DNA of 64,000 nucleotides from Desulfobacterales bacterium (GCA_021737275.1 JAIPEE010000001.1:1-64000), one strand, 5' to 3'; shown: positions 32,983-39,825, numbered from the stretch's first letter. The notes: a model not told the origin generated them from the letters alone. Made by a program: numbers and translations.

Positions 32983-34359
32983 ATGACGTTAAAAGTCGTT
33001 GGACAAAACGTTTTACGCTATGATGGTTTGGCCCATGTCACCGGTGAAACTCACTTTGCAGATGATGTGATTATTCCGGGCACCCTGACAGTAAAAGTTT
33101 TAAGAAGCCCTGTGTCTAAAGGCAAAATTATGAATCTTGATATTAGGGCTGCAATGTCGGTACCGGGAGTAGCAAGTGTCATTACTGCAGATGATGTCCC
33201 CTGCAATGGATATGGGCATATCCCGGACCAGCCCGTTCTGGTTGAGGAAATGGTGCGTTACAAAGGAGAGCCCATAGTTGCAGTTGCTGCGGTAGATGAA
33301 GACACCGCCATTGAAGCCCTTGAAAAGATTCAGCTGGGCATTGAAGAAGAAGAACCCGTTTTTGACCACATTCAGGCCATGATGCCGGATGCTCCCAAAG
33401 TCCGTCCTGAAGGCAATATCCATATGTTTGGTAAATATCCTTTTCGCCAGGTTAAATTTGGAGATATAGATGCCGGGTTCAGGGAGGCAGATGTTATTAT
33501 TGAAAATACCTATCGTCATCCCTCTCTTGAGCATGCACAGCTTGAACCTATGGTTTCTCAGGCCGTTCCGGAAGCCGGAGGGAAACTGACAGTATATACG
33601 GTCAGCCAGGCACCGCATTTCCACCTTGAGGAATTATACGGTATCCTGAAAGTGAAAAAAAACAATGTAAGTGGTAAACATTGGATAACTGAAAAAGGAA
33701 GTAGAACAGGGCAAGGTTTAGAATTTGGTGATATAAATTTTATAGGAGGAACTGTCGGCGGTGGTTTTGGTGGAAAGAATGATATGCATGCAGATCATAT
33801 CACAGCACTGCTAGCTTTAAAATCCGGGCAACCTTGCAAGTGGCGATGGACCCGTGAAGAGGATCTGTTATATTCAACCTATCGCGGCTGCTGGTATATC
33901 ACCATCAAAGATGGCGTAAAGAAAGATGGGCGTATTGTCGCCCGTAAAATCAAAACAATCAGGGAATCCGGTGCTTATGCCTCCAGCAATCCCCATGTTG
34001 TGGAGCATAATATTTTCAATAGTACCGGCCCTTATTTTATACCCAATGTTCATAGCCGGGGATATTGTGTTTATACCAACAAGCCACCTGCCAGTTCCAT
34101 GAGAGGTTTTGGCCTCACGCCATCAACTTTTGCAACAGAAGTTCAGGCAAATAAAATTGCTTCGGAACTATCCATGGACCCCTGGGAATTTCGTTTCAAA
34201 AATGTATACAGGAATGGGGATTTGACGTCTACCGGAAGTAAGTTGGATAGTGTTGCCCTGATAGAGATGATGCAGACACTGGCTGAGAAAACGGGCGTGA
34301 CTCTTCCGGATAGACTAAAACAAATGTCCTCAGCAAAAAGGGGGGGAAATTCAATTTGA
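32983..34359 (+). CDS. Molybdenum hydroxylase large subunit, N-terminal part
   Basis: The 458 residues cover the first domain and the first half of the molybdopterin domain: VTGETHFADDVIIPGTLTVK, HPSLEHAQLEPMV, the cofactor motif FIGGTVGGGFGGKND and PPASSMRGFGLTPSTFA. The AYRCSFR loop of true CO dehydrogenase is absent, so the substrate is more likely an N-heterocycle, aldehyde or aromatic CoA ester. The frame ends in TGA right after a run of seven G. The rest of the subunit continues in the -1 frame. Usual large subunits are about 750-780 residues in one chain, so this is half a protein. Confidence 0.85.
   Translation: MTLKVVGQNVLRYDGLAHVTGETHFADDVIIPGTLTVKVLRSPVSKGKIMNLDIRAAMSVPGVASVITADDVPCNGYGHIPDQPVLVEEMVRYKGEPIVAVAAVDEDTAIEALEKIQLGIEEEEPVFDHIQAMMPDAPKVRPEGNIHMFGKYPFRQVKFGDIDAGFREADVIIENTYRHPSLEHAQLEPMVSQAVPEAGGKLTVYTVSQAPHFHLEELYGILKVKKNNVSGKHWITEKGSRTGQGLEFGDINFIGGTVGGGFGGKNDMHADHITALLALKSGQPCKWRWTREEDLLYSTYRGCWYITIKDGVKKDGRIVARKIKTIRESGAYASSNPHVVEHNIFNSTGPYFIPNVHSRGYCVYTNKPPASSMRGFGLTPSTFATEVQANKIASELSMDPWEFRFKNVYRNGDLTSTGSKLDSVALIEMMQTLAEKTGVTLPDRLKQMSSAKRGGNSI
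34341..34347 (+). other. Possible -1 frameshift heptamer G GGG GGA
   Basis: In the frame of the N-terminal half the codons are AGG GGG GGA, so the bases 34341-34347 form an X XXY YYZ slippery heptamer. A -1 slip here continues as KFNLKNRGTGIAIG into the C-terminal half without loss of family residues. No strong downstream stem-loop was recognised. A plain indel in the G-run is an equally simple explanation. Confidence 0.4.
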
Positions 34360-35345
34360 AAAACAGAGGAACGGGTATAGCAATAGGCCACTATCCGACC
34401 GGGCAAAATGGCGGTGGTGATCCAAGTCAGGCAATGGTTAAAATTCAACCCGATGGCAGTGCTGTTCTTACAGTTGGATCATGTGACCTGGGGCAAGGGT
34501 GTAAAACTATTTTGGCTCAGATGGCCGCTGAAGTACTTGGTATGGAATATGAGCAGGTTAAAGTAATTAATCACTCTGTAGACAACACGCCAATGAGCTC
34601 CGGATCATATGCAAGCCGCGTGACTTATGTAGACGGTAAAGCAACCGTTGAAGCTGCCGAAAATGCAAGAGAGATCTTATTTCAGGTAGCAGGAGAAATA
34701 TTAGAGGCTTCTCCATCGGACTTAATCATTGAAAACGGTAAAGTATTCGTTAAGGGAGATAGAAAACGATTTAAAACCATCAGTAAAATTGTAGAAGTCG
34801 CCACCTATGAAAAACACAAACAGGTCGTTGGCCTTGGACACTTCATGAAAGATTTCTCTAAACCTGATCCGGAAACAGGTGAGTGTGATCCTTTCTGTAC
34901 GCTTTCCTGGGGAGTCTCTTTTGCCGAGGTGGAAGTTGATACAGATACGGGTGAGGTAGAGGTCCTTAGATTTGTCAGCTATTATGACGCGGGTAAAGCG
35001 ATAAATCCCATGCTTGTCGAAGGGCAGATTCAGGGTGGTTCGGTTATGGGATTAGGTGCAGCACTTATGGAAGACCTGCATCCCTATTATCCAAATATCG
35101 AGCACCAGCCTGATAATTTAAGCGACTATTCTATTCCAACAACAATGGACATCCCGGATTTTGAAGCACTCATTTACGAATGCCCTTCGACAGAAGGGCC
35201 ATATGGCGCAAAGGGTATTGGGGAACTGTCGGCCAATTATCCATCTCCGGCTATTATAAATGCAATTCATGATGCTATTGGTGTATGGCTTACTGAATTA
35301 CCTGCGAGTCCGGAAAAAGTGCTCAGGGCTTTGGAAAGTCAATAA
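34356..35345 (+). CDS. Molybdenum hydroxylase large subunit, C-terminal part
   Basis: The frame opens with a TTG overlapping the previous stop and gives 329 residues. They contain the second half of the molybdopterin domain: GGGDPSQAMVKIQPDGSA, VGSCDLGQGCKT, the substrate-pocket region MSSGSYASRVTY, and the catalytic base Glu290 in GPYGAKGIGELSANYPSPA. The family glutamate that starts hydroxylation is therefore kept. The purine run AGGGGGGGA could act as a ribosome site for a separate start, or the two halves could be joined by frameshifting. The reading frame shows no other lesion. Confidence 0.85.
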   Translation: MKNRGTGIAIGHYPTGQNGGGDPSQAMVKIQPDGSAVLTVGSCDLGQGCKTILAQMAAEVLGMEYEQVKVINHSVDNTPMSSGSYASRVTYVDGKATVEAAENAREILFQVAGEILEASPSDLIIENGKVFVKGDRKRFKTISKIVEVATYEKHKQVVGLGHFMKDFSKPDPETGECDPFCTLSWGVSFAEVEVDTDTGEVEVLRFVSYYDAGKAINPMLVEGQIQGGSVMGLGAALMEDLHPYYPNIEHQPDNLSDYSIPTTMDIPDFEALIYECPSTEGPYGAKGIGELSANYPSPAIINAIHDAIGVWLTELPASPEKVLRALESQ

Positions 35346-35625: not shown

Positions 35626-37974
35626 CTACTTCTTTTCATTGAATATGACTACAATCTCAATGTCATCTTTACCGGATCGTGATGGGAACTTAATTTTACT
35701 TGTATTTTGAAGTAAACATTTCTCAGTCTCTTTTTTCCCGGACACACCTTTAATCTTAAAAGTAATAACTGAACCTGACGGATTTACGGTCATGATAACT
35801 TTTATTGTTTTCCATTTACCGCCGGCCTGATGGACACAAGATTCAAATACAGCCATATTATTTTCAATAATTGTCCTGATATCTTTTTCAATCAACCCTT
35901 TTGGAACTTCAATTTTATAAATCTCAAGGCTTACCTTTTTTCCGTCTTCAAGTTCGCGGCTCTCTTCAATTTTCATTGAATCTTTTTTATCTTCATCTCC
36001 CCCTTTTTCCACCCGATAAACTTCGGTGGCAACAGATGGTTCTGATAACTGTGTTGCCATCATTTTCGATGCCACATTTCCAACCGCATAATCCGAAACA
36101 CCCTGGGGTAAAGGTAATGGCTGTTTAACCGTAGTCGCCTGGCCATTTTCCAGTCTTTTTTCAGAATCGATGGCGATAAATGATGTATACGCTGTCAATA
36201 AATTATAGGTGAGCCCAAGGTTTGTTACTTCATTTATTCGTTCATCGTTTGGCCTGAGCCTGTTATAGTCTGCAAGTACTGATATTTTGTGTCTCGCCCA
36301 GAGGTATCTCAGGGCCGAATTATTTTTTGCGGGTTTTACATCTGAAACATCAATTGTTTTCCTATATTTTTCATTACCGGTAATACCGGTCAGTTTTATT
36401 TTTCCGATTGGTTTACCGCGCCACTTTCCAAATATGATGACCGGCCTTTCAGCAAGAACATCCGGTATACTTGGCGGTTCCACGTCATAAACATAAAACT
36501 TGCCGTAATCAATCTTGATATTTGTTAAAACCGGAGACTGAATCAATTTTCTGAATTTTTCAGCTTTTTCTTTTGCTTCATCAGGATGTGTTACCACAAA
36601 TGGTTTTCCCATTCCGACATTGGCCATACCTTCGATAAGGTGGCGGTTGACGCTGGAGCCAATACCAAAAGCAAACATATTGGCCTCACCAAGTCGATTA
36701 CGAATCAGATCAAACGTTTCTTCTTCAACAGAAACATAGCCATCTGTGGCAATTACGATGCTGCGTTAAAAACCCTCTGTACCCGGCATGGCTAACGCCT
36801 TTTTTAGTGCCGGAAGAATCCGGGTACTGCCGCCGCCCCGCTGCTGTTCAATAACATTTATTGCCTTGTTAATATTTTGCGAAGTTGCAGGTAAGGATTG
36901 TTCTGACATTACAGATGCGCTGCCGGCAAAAAGCATAACATTAAATCTGTCTATTGTTCGAAGATTGCCGATCAGCTCTCTTAACAGTTTTTTAGAAGTA
37001 TCCAGAGGGAAACCGTGCATAGAACCTGAAATATCCACGATAAAAATATATTCCCGCGGGGGAATTTCATCTGTTTTTACCTGTTTTGGCGGCTGAACCA
37101 TCATAAGAAAAAAGTTTTCATCTTTTCCTTCATATAAAAGAAGACCTGATTCTATCTTTCCGCCTGCAAGGCGATACCTCAAAATATAATCGCGGTTACC
37201 GCCATATTTTTCAGACTCATTGAGCCTTATGGTAACATCATTTTTCCCATCGAAATTAATATCCGTTTTATGGGTCTTGCAGGAAGCTTCCTGAATAGGC
37301 AGGCCTGCAGCAATATTTACGGTGATATTCAGCGTATTTTGGGGTGCTTCTCCCTGGCGCAGATATGGATTAGCCGTCCAGTTTTCAGATTTTCCGGTAT
37401 AATCACCCTGCGGGCCGGTATAACGCGGACCCACTACTGTGGGGTACATAAACTCGTACACGGCATCAGTGGGAACAAGCAGTTCCGTATATTTCATTTC
37501 TACTTTTATAATATCACCCGGTAGAATATTGGCCACATTCATCTGAAACACATTAGGGCGCTGTTGCTCCAGCAGGGATGCACTCTGGCCACTGTTTTTG
37601 GCATCCTCATAAGCCTGACGCGCTTTCTCCCGCTCCTGAATATTTGCAACAATCGTTCTTTCACCTATCTGCATCTTCATTCCATAAACGGCTGCCCGAG
37701 TCGATGCCGGAAAAATATAGATGGCTTCGAGAGGACGTTGGCCCTTATTTGTATAAATCTGTGTAACCGTAACATCAGCCATAACGCCTGAAATATTTAC
37801 TGCGACATCGGTTGATTTCAATGGCAACGGGTCTACGGACGGATCATCACTTTGTACAAAAAAGTATGGTGACATGGATTTGTCAGGATTATTATCTATC
37901 CCGGTAGCGCCTGCCTGTGGTGAAAGCAGCAGCCCCAGTATGAATATTGATATGATTTTTATTACGGATTTCAT
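35626..37974 (-). pseudogene. Exported VIT-vWA domain protein interrupted by one in-frame TAA
   Basis: Signal peptide to about residue 23; VIT domain at about 40-165 (VAVNISGVMADVTVTQIYTN, IYIFPASTRAAVYGMKM); vWA domain from about 305 with the MIDAS Asp314-x-Ser316-x-Ser318 (FIVDISGSMHG). Codon 403 is TAA (36766-36768). The same frame then continues directly with RSIVIATDGYVSVEEETFDLI, the rest of the vWA domain, then LGLTYNLLTAYTSFIAID and a C-terminal AgmX-like domain (GLIEKDIRTIIENN, VNPSGSV). TCA to TAA is a one-base change. Without it the protein would be 781 residues. GGAGG precedes the ATG, and an ECF-type promoter lies upstream. Confidence 0.85.
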
Positions 37975-38004
37975 TTTTGCCTCCTTGTCAGTATTGTCAT
38001 TATG

Positions 38005-38018
38005 GAAACGGCCGTTTC
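38005..38018. repeat. Perfect 14-base palindrome in the vWA leader
   Basis: GAAACGGCCGTTTC lies between the ECF-type promoter and the vWA start codon. It may be an operator or a small leader hairpin. No function can be assigned. Confidence 0.4.
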
Positions 38019-38035
38019 AATTTATATTTGAATAT

Positions 38036-38063
38036 ATAGACAAGGAAGTGTGGAAAAAGTTCC
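38036..38063 (-). promoter_or_regulatory. ECF sigma promoter of the VIT-vWA gene
   Basis: On the minus strand GGAACTT (38063-38057) is followed after exactly 15 bases by GTCTAT (38041-38036). This is the RpoE-type consensus and nearly copies the element in front of the sigma factor gene. Transcription would start near 38029, leaving a leader of about 55 bases before the ATG. Confidence 0.8.
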
Positions 38064-38177
38064 CATTATTTTTATGAAACTGGGAAAATGCAAAAAGTGG
38101 TATGGATTTTGGTATTTAAATATGAAATACCGGAGATGTCATGCCCGTGAAAATGGGTCTGCAGAAAAAATTGTATG

Positions 38178-39191
38178 TTAACCGGGATCTACAATTCTAA
38201 TATTGATCCGGATCGTTTCCATATCCTTTATTGAAACATCAGGCGGCGGGGTTTTAAAATCTGCAATCGGTTTTAATTGGTTCAGAAAATTATCATATTT
38301 ATCAGCCGGGATTTCCGCATTTAAAGAGTGCCCTGAATCCTTATTGTCTTTAACAGTGACTATTCTGCCATTAATTTGTTCAATAAGTGATTTAACCTGT
38401 ATCATTATACCTCCCGGTTCCGGTGCAGAAGGAGTATAATAGCTATTTGCTTTATCCTGATCTTCTCCAGCCTCATCTTCAGTTCTCCCCTCCCTATATG
38501 TATCAGCGGTACTCCGCGACATTGTCTTTTCGGAAACAGACAAACCGGTAAGGGGTGATTCAGATATTTTCTGTTTTTCCTCTGCAGCCGGTTCTTTTTT
38601 TAAATCTGAAGTATATTCCATCTCGACCGGCTGAGTCTGTAATCTGCCTGTAACCTTTGGCATTATCACAAGTGCAAGCTCAAAGGGCTCACTTCCTTCA
38701 GCCTTGGCCGGACTGGGTACCGTGGATGGCATTACTGCATTCTGCCTTTCTTCTTCTTTCCGGACAACCGGTGTATCCTTCATTTGTGTTAAAGGTTCAT
38801 TAACCTCAAAGGCTCTCTTTTCCATCGAAGAAACAGGCAGCTGCTTCACATCCTGCTGAGTCGTTGTGACAAAGAACACCAGCACACCAACCATGGCAGC
38901 CGTTGCAAATTCAATGGGAATCTTTATCCTGAATGGAACAAACAGGGTTCTGAAAAGTTTTTTTAAAAATGATTCAGGTTTAATTCGTTTATGAAGATTT
39001 TCCATAAAATCAGACGGCGCCTTTATGATAGGCAGATCTCCCAGTGCGTTTGAAACAGATTGAAGCGCTGACAGTTTTTCGGCGCATTCTGTACAGGAAG
39101 CAATATGTTCTTCAACCCGGGGGCGGATCTCATCATCAAGGGCATTATCAATAAATGCTGACAGATGCTTTTCAATATCCCTGCAGTTCAT
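38178..39191 (-). CDS. Membrane-anchored zinc-finger anti-sigma factor (DUF2275-like C-terminus)
   Basis: A 337-residue protein. The N-terminal anti-sigma zinc-binding domain shows CRDIEKHLSAFIDNAL and the HxxxCxxC motif (HIASCTEC, about residues 29-36), which clamps the sigma factor. One membrane helix lies at about 93-110 (EFATAAMVGVLVFFVTTT). The periplasmic part has a long low-complexity stretch and a C-terminal domain (GGIMIQVKSLIEQINGRIV, LNAEIPADKYDNFLNQLKP) resembling DUF2275. The gene overlaps the sigma gene by four bases (ATGA), the usual coupling. Envelope signals probably release the sigma factor through this protein. The vWA gene follows on the same strand. Confidence 0.9.
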   Translation of the reverse strand: MNCRDIEKHLSAFIDNALDDEIRPRVEEHIASCTECAEKLSALQSVSNALGDLPIIKAPSDFMENLHKRIKPESFLKKLFRTLFVPFRIKIPIEFATAAMVGVLVFFVTTTQQDVKQLPVSSMEKRAFEVNEPLTQMKDTPVVRKEEERQNAVMPSTVPSPAKAEGSEPFELALVIMPKVTGRLQTQPVEMEYTSDLKKEPAAEEKQKISESPLTGLSVSEKTMSRSTADTYREGRTEDEAGEDQDKANSYYTPSAPEPGGIMIQVKSLIEQINGRIVTVKDNKDSGHSLNAEIPADKYDNFLNQLKPIADFKTPPPDVSIKDMETIRINIRIVDPG

Positions 39192-39793
39192 TTTAATACT
39201 CCCTTAAGTTTCTTTTTCAGATCCATTCTGGCTCTTGATAATTTTGATTTAACGGTTCCTGAATTCAGGCCCGTAATTTTTTCAATCTCTTCGTAGCTTA
39301 ATCCCTCGATATCTCTCAACACAGCCACCGTCTTTTTATCCGGTGGCAATGAATTGATTGCTTTTCTGATAGTGGCCGTTTGTTCCTTTTTTTCGAGTGC
39401 CTCCTGTGGTGAATTCACATTATTTTCAATCACTATGTTGACCGGATTGCCGTTTTCAGGTCCTGCATCCAGGCGGTCCATCCATTTTTTATACCGATAT
39501 TCCATGGATTTGATCCTGTTTTTACAGGTATTGACTGCTATCCTGTATATCCATGTGGAAAAAGCCGACTCAAACCTGAATTTGTCAAGCGACCCAAATG
39601 CCTTAATAAATATGTCCTGTGCCATATCATCGGCTTCCTGAAAATCCCCAAGGAACCAGTAACAAAGATTATATATCCGGTCCTTATGCCGGTTTACCAG
39701 TTTGTCAAATGCCGCCTTTTCTCCTGCACAAAATGAACGGATCAGATCATGATCTTCTGATGAATCAGCATTTGATAATACGGTTTCTTTCAT
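39188..39793 (-). CDS. ECF RNA polymerase sigma factor, RpoE-like
   Basis: Sigma-70 region 2 is seen at about residues 25-95 (FDKLVNRHKDRIYNLCYWFL, EADDMAQDIFIKAFGSLDKF, FSTWIYRIAVNTCKNRI). Region 4 is at about 140-195 (LPPDKKTVAVLRDIEGLSYEEI, LNSGTVKSKLSRARMDLKKKL). The ATG at 39793 is chosen, giving 201 residues; an upstream TTG lies inside the promoter -10. No Shine-Dalgarno sequence precedes the ATG, and the predicted transcription start is at or beside it, so the message may be leaderless. The 4-base overlap with the anti-sigma gene and the self-type promoter indicate autoregulation. Confidence 0.93.
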   Translation of the reverse strand: MKETVLSNADSSEDHDLIRSFCAGEKAAFDKLVNRHKDRIYNLCYWFLGDFQEADDMAQDIFIKAFGSLDKFRFESAFSTWIYRIAVNTCKNRIKSMEYRYKKWMDRLDAGPENGNPVNIVIENNVNSPQEALEKKEQTATIRKAINSLPPDKKTVAVLRDIEGLSYEEIEKITGLNSGTVKSKLSRARMDLKKKLKGVLK

Positions 39794-39797
39794 AAAT

Positions 39798-39825
39798 TTA
39801 GACAAAAATGTACATAAAAAGTTCC
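39798..39825 (-). promoter_or_regulatory. Autoregulatory ECF promoter of the sigma factor gene
   Basis: GGAACTT (39825-39819), 15 bases, then GTCTAA (39803-39798) on the minus strand match the RpoE-type consensus at every defined position. The -10 ends five bases before the ATG. The same element with the same spacer length precedes the VIT-vWA gene. Confidence 0.82.

What the first reader, a model, noticed from the sequence alone, without database searches (positions are those of the whole stretch)
35626..39825. Self-contained ECF sigma circuit with two matching promoters, driving a VIT-vWA surface protein
The sigma gene (39798-39825) and the VIT-vWA gene (38036-38063) each carry GGAACTT, exactly 15 bases, then GTCTAA or GTCTAT on the coding strand. 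I found no other full match in intergenic DNA of the window. The sigma gene overlaps a membrane-anchored zinc-finger anti-sigma gene by four bases. The effector couples a VIT domain, a metal-binding vWA domain and an AgmX-like C-terminal domain in the periplasm. Together they look like an autoregulated envelope-sensing module whose output is a surface or adhesion machine. The family types are known; this specific pairing and promoter regulon is what seems undescribed.
Basis: partly seen in the sequence, partly recalled or inferred. Interest (0 to 1): 0.7.

Follow-up and report, generated by a model that had tools for sequence, protein, structure and literature searches.

The report
One-output stress switch, effector gene broken
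This stretch holds a bacterial stress switch (a sigma factor and its membrane-bound inhibitor) whose promoter motif occurs only before the switch itself and one secreted-protein gene; the wiring is conserved in many related sediment bacteria, but in this genome the output gene carries a premature stop codon.

Summary
GGAACTT-N15-GTCTAW occurs twice in the window and only twice in the 4.26 Mb genome: before an ECF sigma gene and before a VIT-vWA gene. The ATGA overlap of sigma and anti-sigma is real. Comparison shows a conserved circuit. In 25 circuit-bearing Desulfobacterales genomes, 43 of 50 motif sites lie before the sigma or the tailed VIT-vWA gene; eight genomes with a tailed gene but no detected sigma ortholog have none. 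In two genomes sigma and effector are unlinked, yet both promoters persist. The motif goes with VIT-vWA genes that carry an AgmX/TonB-C-like tail (19/29), not untailed ones (1/35). Corrections: here the VIT-vWA gene has an in-frame TAA (36766-36768) inside the vWA domain, so the effector is broken or the assembly wrong; and nothing supports a surface or adhesion machine (signal peptide, no anchor, fold like inter-alpha-inhibitor heavy chain). Addition: the sigma ATG lies 4-5 nt after its own -10 in 29 of 34 distinct promoters, predicting a leaderless sigma mRNA. The promoter is the classical sigma-E type, so the kind is known; the near-single output, effector family and start geometry look undescribed. 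Regulation is inferred; no transcription data exist.

The parts
39798..39825 (-). predicted sigma-E-type promoter of the sigma operon: -35 GGAACTT (39825-39819), -10 GTCTAA (39803-39798)
   Evidence: position conserved in 34 distinct sigma promoters
39188..39793 (-). ECF sigma factor, ATG start 4 nt after the -10 element (predicted leaderless from this promoter); an in-frame TTG at 39805 overlaps the -10
   Evidence: Sigma70_r2 E 3.9e-18, r4_2 E 8.7e-16; start geometry
38178..39191 (-). membrane anti-sigma factor: zf-HC2 domain (C3, H29, C33, C36), membrane helix about 93-115, disordered periplasmic linker, small C-terminal domain; overlaps sigma by ATGA
38036..38063 (-). predicted sigma-E-type promoter of the VIT-vWA gene: -35 GGAACTT (38063-38057), -10 GTCTAT (38041-38036)
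   Evidence: conserved upstream of 58 of 73 named tailed relatives
37980..37986 (-). Shine-Dalgarno-like AAGGAGG before the VIT-vWA ATG (ordinary leader, unlike sigma)
   Evidence: read from sequence
35626..37974 (-). VIT-vWA gene with AgmX/TonB-C-like C-terminal tail, interrupted
   Evidence: VIT E 6.9e-37, VWA_2 E 1.5e-9; tail 26.6 bits; aligned to intact relatives
36766..36768 (-). in-frame TAA stop (residue 403) inside the vWA domain, before the last MIDAS aspartate; relatives have an open frame here

Best explanation
An ECF sigma/anti-sigma pair dedicated almost entirely to one output. A zinc-finger anti-sigma with a periplasmic domain holds the sigma at the inner membrane. On an envelope signal the anti-sigma is inactivated, presumably by regulated proteolysis in its long disordered periplasmic linker (inferred). 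The freed sigma transcribes its own operon, as an mRNA that should start at or next to the sigma ATG (predicted leaderless), and one other gene, adjacent or distant. That gene encodes a secreted VIT-vWA protein with the fold of an inter-alpha-inhibitor heavy chain, a metal-dependent (MIDAS) ligand site and a TonB-C/AgmX-like tail. The effector probably binds an envelope partner through the MIDAS site as part of envelope protection (inferred, weakest step). In this particular genome the effector gene has a premature stop, so the circuit has either recently lost its output or the consensus base is wrong. Shown by sequence: genes, promoter motifs, their conservation and co-occurrence, the stop codon. 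Inferred: transcription, signal, proteolysis, effector function.
For: Motif occurs only at these two places in the genome. In 25 circuit genomes 43 of 50 sites of a stricter motif precede sigma or tailed VIT-vWA; 8 genomes with a tailed gene but no detected sigma ortholog have 0 sites against 10 for the reversed pattern. Tail and promoter go together: 19/29 tailed against 1/35 untailed, Fisher 3.6e-8. Sigma ortholog detected in 16 of 19 promoter-bearing and 0 of 10 promoter-less tailed genomes (1.4e-5 one-sided, by hand). In G015 and G080 sigma operon and effector are unlinked, yet both keep the promoter. Sigma ATG 4-5 nt after -10 in 29 of 34. Anti-sigma domain superposes on RsiW, RslA, ChrR, MucA. 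Effector model matches ITIH1, Z 22.8 over 512 residues; MIDAS residues invariant in 42 orthologs.
Against: No RNA or protein data. GGAAC-N17-GTC is recognised by many ECFs, and this genome has three more ECF genes. The effector is interrupted here. G213 has an anti-sigma gene upstream of a tailed gene that lacks the motif. G190 and several distant genomes have one or two further targets, so the output is not always single. Genomes are related, so p-values are optimistic. The envelope signal and effector action are untested.
Confidence: 0.78

Rival explanations
1. The two promoters are read by another, general RpoE-type ECF, and the adjacent sigma is only one of several users; the pair is part of an ordinary global envelope-stress regulon.
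For: The motif equals the E. coli RpoE type (GGAACTT -35; PMC8103513), and three other ECF genes exist in this genome.
Against: Only two sites in the genome; promoter presence tracks this sigma's orthologs across genomes.
Confidence: 0.1
2. The effector is a surface adhesin or part of a motility/adhesion machine.
For: vWA/MIDAS domains bind ligands in adhesins (LapA vWFA 9no5 and SpaC 6m48 appear); the tail profile family is named after gliding proteins, with GltG and GltJ profiles matching.
Against: No anchor or sorting signal seen; the best full-length fold match is a soluble serum protein; no linked secretion, pilus or gliding genes in the loci inspected; the gene is interrupted here.
Confidence: 0.12
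3. The premature stop is an error of the assembly and the gene is intact in the organism.
For: Draft assembly of 104 contigs; the rest of the frame is well conserved; a neighbouring gene is also split, at a run of seven G.
Against: The stop is a substitution-type change, not at a homopolymer; no reads were available to test it.
Confidence: 0.45

Closest known systems
E. coli RpoE-RseA and B. subtilis SigW-RsiW type ECF/anti-sigma systems
   Same: sigma2-sigma4 factor, overlapping membrane anti-sigma gene, GGAACTT-type promoter, autoregulation; anti-sigma domain superposes on RsiW
   Different: below the RpoE and SigW equivalog cut-offs (139 of 236 and 138 of 209 bits); regulon of two sites; sigma start codon 4-5 nt after its own -10
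TIGR03788 marine proteobacterial sortase target protein
   Same: same VIT-vWA core; all 42 orthologs match the profile
   Different: below its cut-off (417 of 552 bits for L082); no sortase signal seen; an AgmX-like tail takes the C-terminus
Inter-alpha-inhibitor heavy chain 1 (PDB 6fpy)
   Same: VIT plus MIDAS vWA fold, Z 22.8, rmsd 4.8, 512 aligned residues
   Different: 18% identity; bacterial, secreted, with a TonB-C-like tail; no evidence of hyaluronan transfer
AgmX/PglI C-terminal domain (NF033768), TonB C-terminus
   Same: tail matches in 42 of 42 orthologs, best E 4.5e-25; two nearly invariant cysteines
   Different: attached to a secreted VIT-vWA protein, with no cytoplasmic part and no linked gliding genes

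Membership tests
ECF (group IV) sigma factor | sigma2 and sigma4 domains only | tested here: met
   Sigma70_r2 and r4_2 above cut-off, no other sigma domain in 205 aa
ECF (group IV) sigma factor | co-transcribed cognate anti-sigma | tested here: met
   4-base overlap; pair conserved in relatives; co-transcription itself inferred
ECF (group IV) sigma factor | assignment to a published ECF group by its profile | not testable with these tools
   the classification paper is not held and its profiles are not among the libraries
RpoE equivalog (TIGR02939) | score above curated cut-off | tested here: not met
   139.1 of 236.15 bits
zinc-finger anti-sigma (zf-HC2) | zf-HC2 domain with C, H, C, C ligands | tested here: met
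   38.2 bits, cut-off 22.2; C3, H29, C33, C36 invariant in 25
DUF2275 anti-sigma | DUF2275 above cut-off | tested here: inconclusive
   14.5 of 24.6 bits here; 18 of 25 orthologs match, best 1.3e-11
sigma-E-type promoter | GGAACTT -35 and GTCTAA-like -10 with N15 | tested here: met
   -35 of E. coli RpoE in PMC8103513
sigma-E-type promoter | transcription start a few bases after the -10 | not testable with these tools
   needs 5'-end mapping
marine sortase target (TIGR03788) | score above curated cut-off and sortase signal | tested here: not met
   268.6 and 115.1 bits for the two halves, cut-off 551.65; intact ortholog 416.7; C-terminus ends in the tail domain
AgmX/PglI tail (NF033768) | score above domain cut-off of 40 bits | tested here: inconclusive
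   26.6 bits in the window protein, 40.3 in L082, 42 of 42 orthologs match
functional MIDAS vWA protein | intact reading frame through DxSxS, T and D | tested here: not met
   TAA before the last MIDAS aspartate in this genome; intact in relatives

The most novel reading that the evidence does not exclude
The output protein feeds back on its own inhibitor: its TonB-C-like tail pairs in the periplasm with the ferredoxin-like domain of the anti-sigma (both are predicted with a similar strand-helix-strand-strand-helix-strand order), so one effector both executes and reports, while the sigma is made from a leaderless mRNA. This would explain why the tailed form is the one under sigma control.
Probability: 0.12. 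Interest if true: 0.75.

Novelty: new member of a known kind. Interest (0 to 1): 0.5.

Why it matters
Most ECF regulons are hard to read because many sigma factors share similar promoters. Here one rare, strict motif marks sigma and output together, even when they are unlinked, across Desulfobacterota and in loci labelled Nitrospirota. That gives a clean natural test of what a bacterial inter-alpha-inhibitor-like VIT-vWA protein does, a family for which the library searched held essentially no functional work in bacteria. The start codon sitting at the predicted transcription start is a testable prediction about how such a sigma is translated.

Tried and rejected
A viral-contig search with the C-terminal half found no relatives. 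Profile comparison of effector tail and anti-sigma C-terminal domain gave no sequence relationship (probability 0.8%, E 0.07), so the feedback idea rests only on similar predicted element order. A larger conserved operon was considered and rejected: between anti-sigma and VIT-vWA the genes differ from genome to genome. Extra motif sites in G065 and G014 fall inside or at the end of unrelated genes and look like chance. Stop-codon read-through as a regulated feature was rejected because no ortholog found has a stop there. Paper searches for ECF together with VIT/vWA found nothing relevant. The anti-sigma C-terminal domain gave only Z 6-7 matches to PilO, PulL and XcpY, which may be a common arrangement.

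Full report
What was checked. Loosening to GGAAC-N16-18-GTCTA adds just two sites, both inside unrelated genes, against 22 for the control. The motif is the familiar sigma-E type: GGAACTT is the E. coli RpoE -35 (PMC8103513), and autoregulation is common among ECFs (same paper). So the signal is known; its rarity here is the point.

Anatomy. On the minus strand: promoter 39825-39798, ECF sigma, anti-sigma overlapping by ATGA, about 200 nt of non-coding DNA holding the second promoter (38063-38036), then the VIT-vWA gene with a Shine-Dalgarno-like sequence. The sigma has only sigma2 and sigma4. The anti-sigma has a zinc-finger domain whose ligands are invariant in 25 orthologs, one membrane helix, a long low-confidence linker and a small C-terminal domain. 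Its N-terminus superposes on RsiW, RslA, ChrR and MucA anti-sigma domains.

The effector is broken here. In fact TAA at 36766-36768 stops it after residue 402, inside the vWA domain. No ortholog found in the order has a stop inside the matched frame. The rest of the frame aligns well to the end. Whether this is a recent pseudogene or a base error cannot be told: the assembly has 104 contigs, and the neighbouring xanthine dehydrogenase-like gene is also split, next to a run of seven G.

Conservation of the circuit. The order is Desulfobacterales, judged from the named hits. Sigma, anti-sigma and VIT-vWA in a row, each promoter in place, recur in many genomes. VIT-vWA genes that carry the AgmX/TonB-C-like tail have the promoter in 19 of 29 cases in the order, untailed ones in 1 of 35 (Fisher 3.6e-8); among 73 named tailed genes 58 have it and 5 have the reversed control. 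A sigma ortholog was detected in 16 of the 19 promoter-bearing genomes and in none of the 10 promoter-less ones (one-sided hypergeometric 1.4e-5, computed by hand). The three misses lie on draft contigs that end close to where sigma would be. In G015 and G080 the sigma operon is far from the effector, or on another contig, and both promoters are still there: the link holds in trans. Relatedness among genomes weakens all p-values.

Regulon size. In 25 circuit genomes the stricter motif has 50 sites (10 for the reversed pattern): 43 lie before a sigma or a tailed VIT-vWA gene, one of them assigned only because it is identical to a verified sigma promoter. In 8 genomes that have a tailed gene but no detected sigma ortholog there are none, against 10 for the reversed pattern. 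Exceptions are informative. G190 has two more sites, before a DUF4139 gene and before a second VIT protein with DUF2135. A Nitrospirae-labelled locus has the promoter before a DUF4139 gene that precedes VIT-vWA. Several more distant genomes have a second target, a secreted protein of about 265-290 residues with no Pfam family. So the regulon is one to a few envelope proteins.

Leaderless sigma. In 29 of 34 distinct sigma promoters with the 17-nt spacing the in-frame ATG begins 4 or 5 nt after the -10 hexamer. Transcription from sigma-E-type promoters starts a few bases after the -10 (own knowledge), so the mRNA should start at or next to the ATG. The effector, in contrast, has an ordinary leader. 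In a distant group an in-frame NTG overlaps the -10 itself, which is unexplained.

What the effector is. The model of an intact ortholog (mean pLDDT 78.7) matches the inter-alpha-inhibitor heavy chain over VIT and vWA (Z 22.8, 512 residues). Metal-site residues are invariant in 42 orthologs. The tail is related by profile to AgmX/PglI, GltG, GltJ and TonB C-termini. There is a signal peptide-like N-terminus and no anchor was seen. A periplasmic metal-dependent binding protein that serves envelope stress is the most likely reading; adhesion is possible but unsupported.

Verdict. The kind of system is known; the effector pairing, near-single output and start-codon geometry appear undescribed in the library searched, though the ECF classification paper itself could not be read.

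Noticed in passing
window 32983-35345 (+): The molybdopterin-binding subunit of a xanthine dehydrogenase-like enzyme is split into two ORFs of 458 and 329 aa overlapping by 4 nt, next to a run of seven G at about 34341-34347; frameshift, natural split or assembly error.
   Followed up: partly
L095, L097, L104, L106, L117-L120, L126, L128: In Syntrophales/Nitrospirota loci an in-frame NTG of the sigma gene overlaps the -10 element (NTGTCTAA), so a transcript from the auto-promoter would begin inside the apparent sigma frame.
   Followed up: partly
L251:3452-5075, L252:2422-5534: G190 carries the same promoter before a DUF4139 gene and before a 989-aa VIT/TPR/DUF2135 gene, suggesting a wider set of outputs in that lineage.
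   Followed up: partly
L258, L272, L274: In distant genomes the promoter also precedes a conserved secreted protein of about 265-290 aa without any Pfam match.
   Followed up: no
L209:1057-2201: In G015 the unlinked sigma/anti-sigma pair is followed by a DUF350 membrane protein and a transglutaminase-like protein.
   Followed up: no
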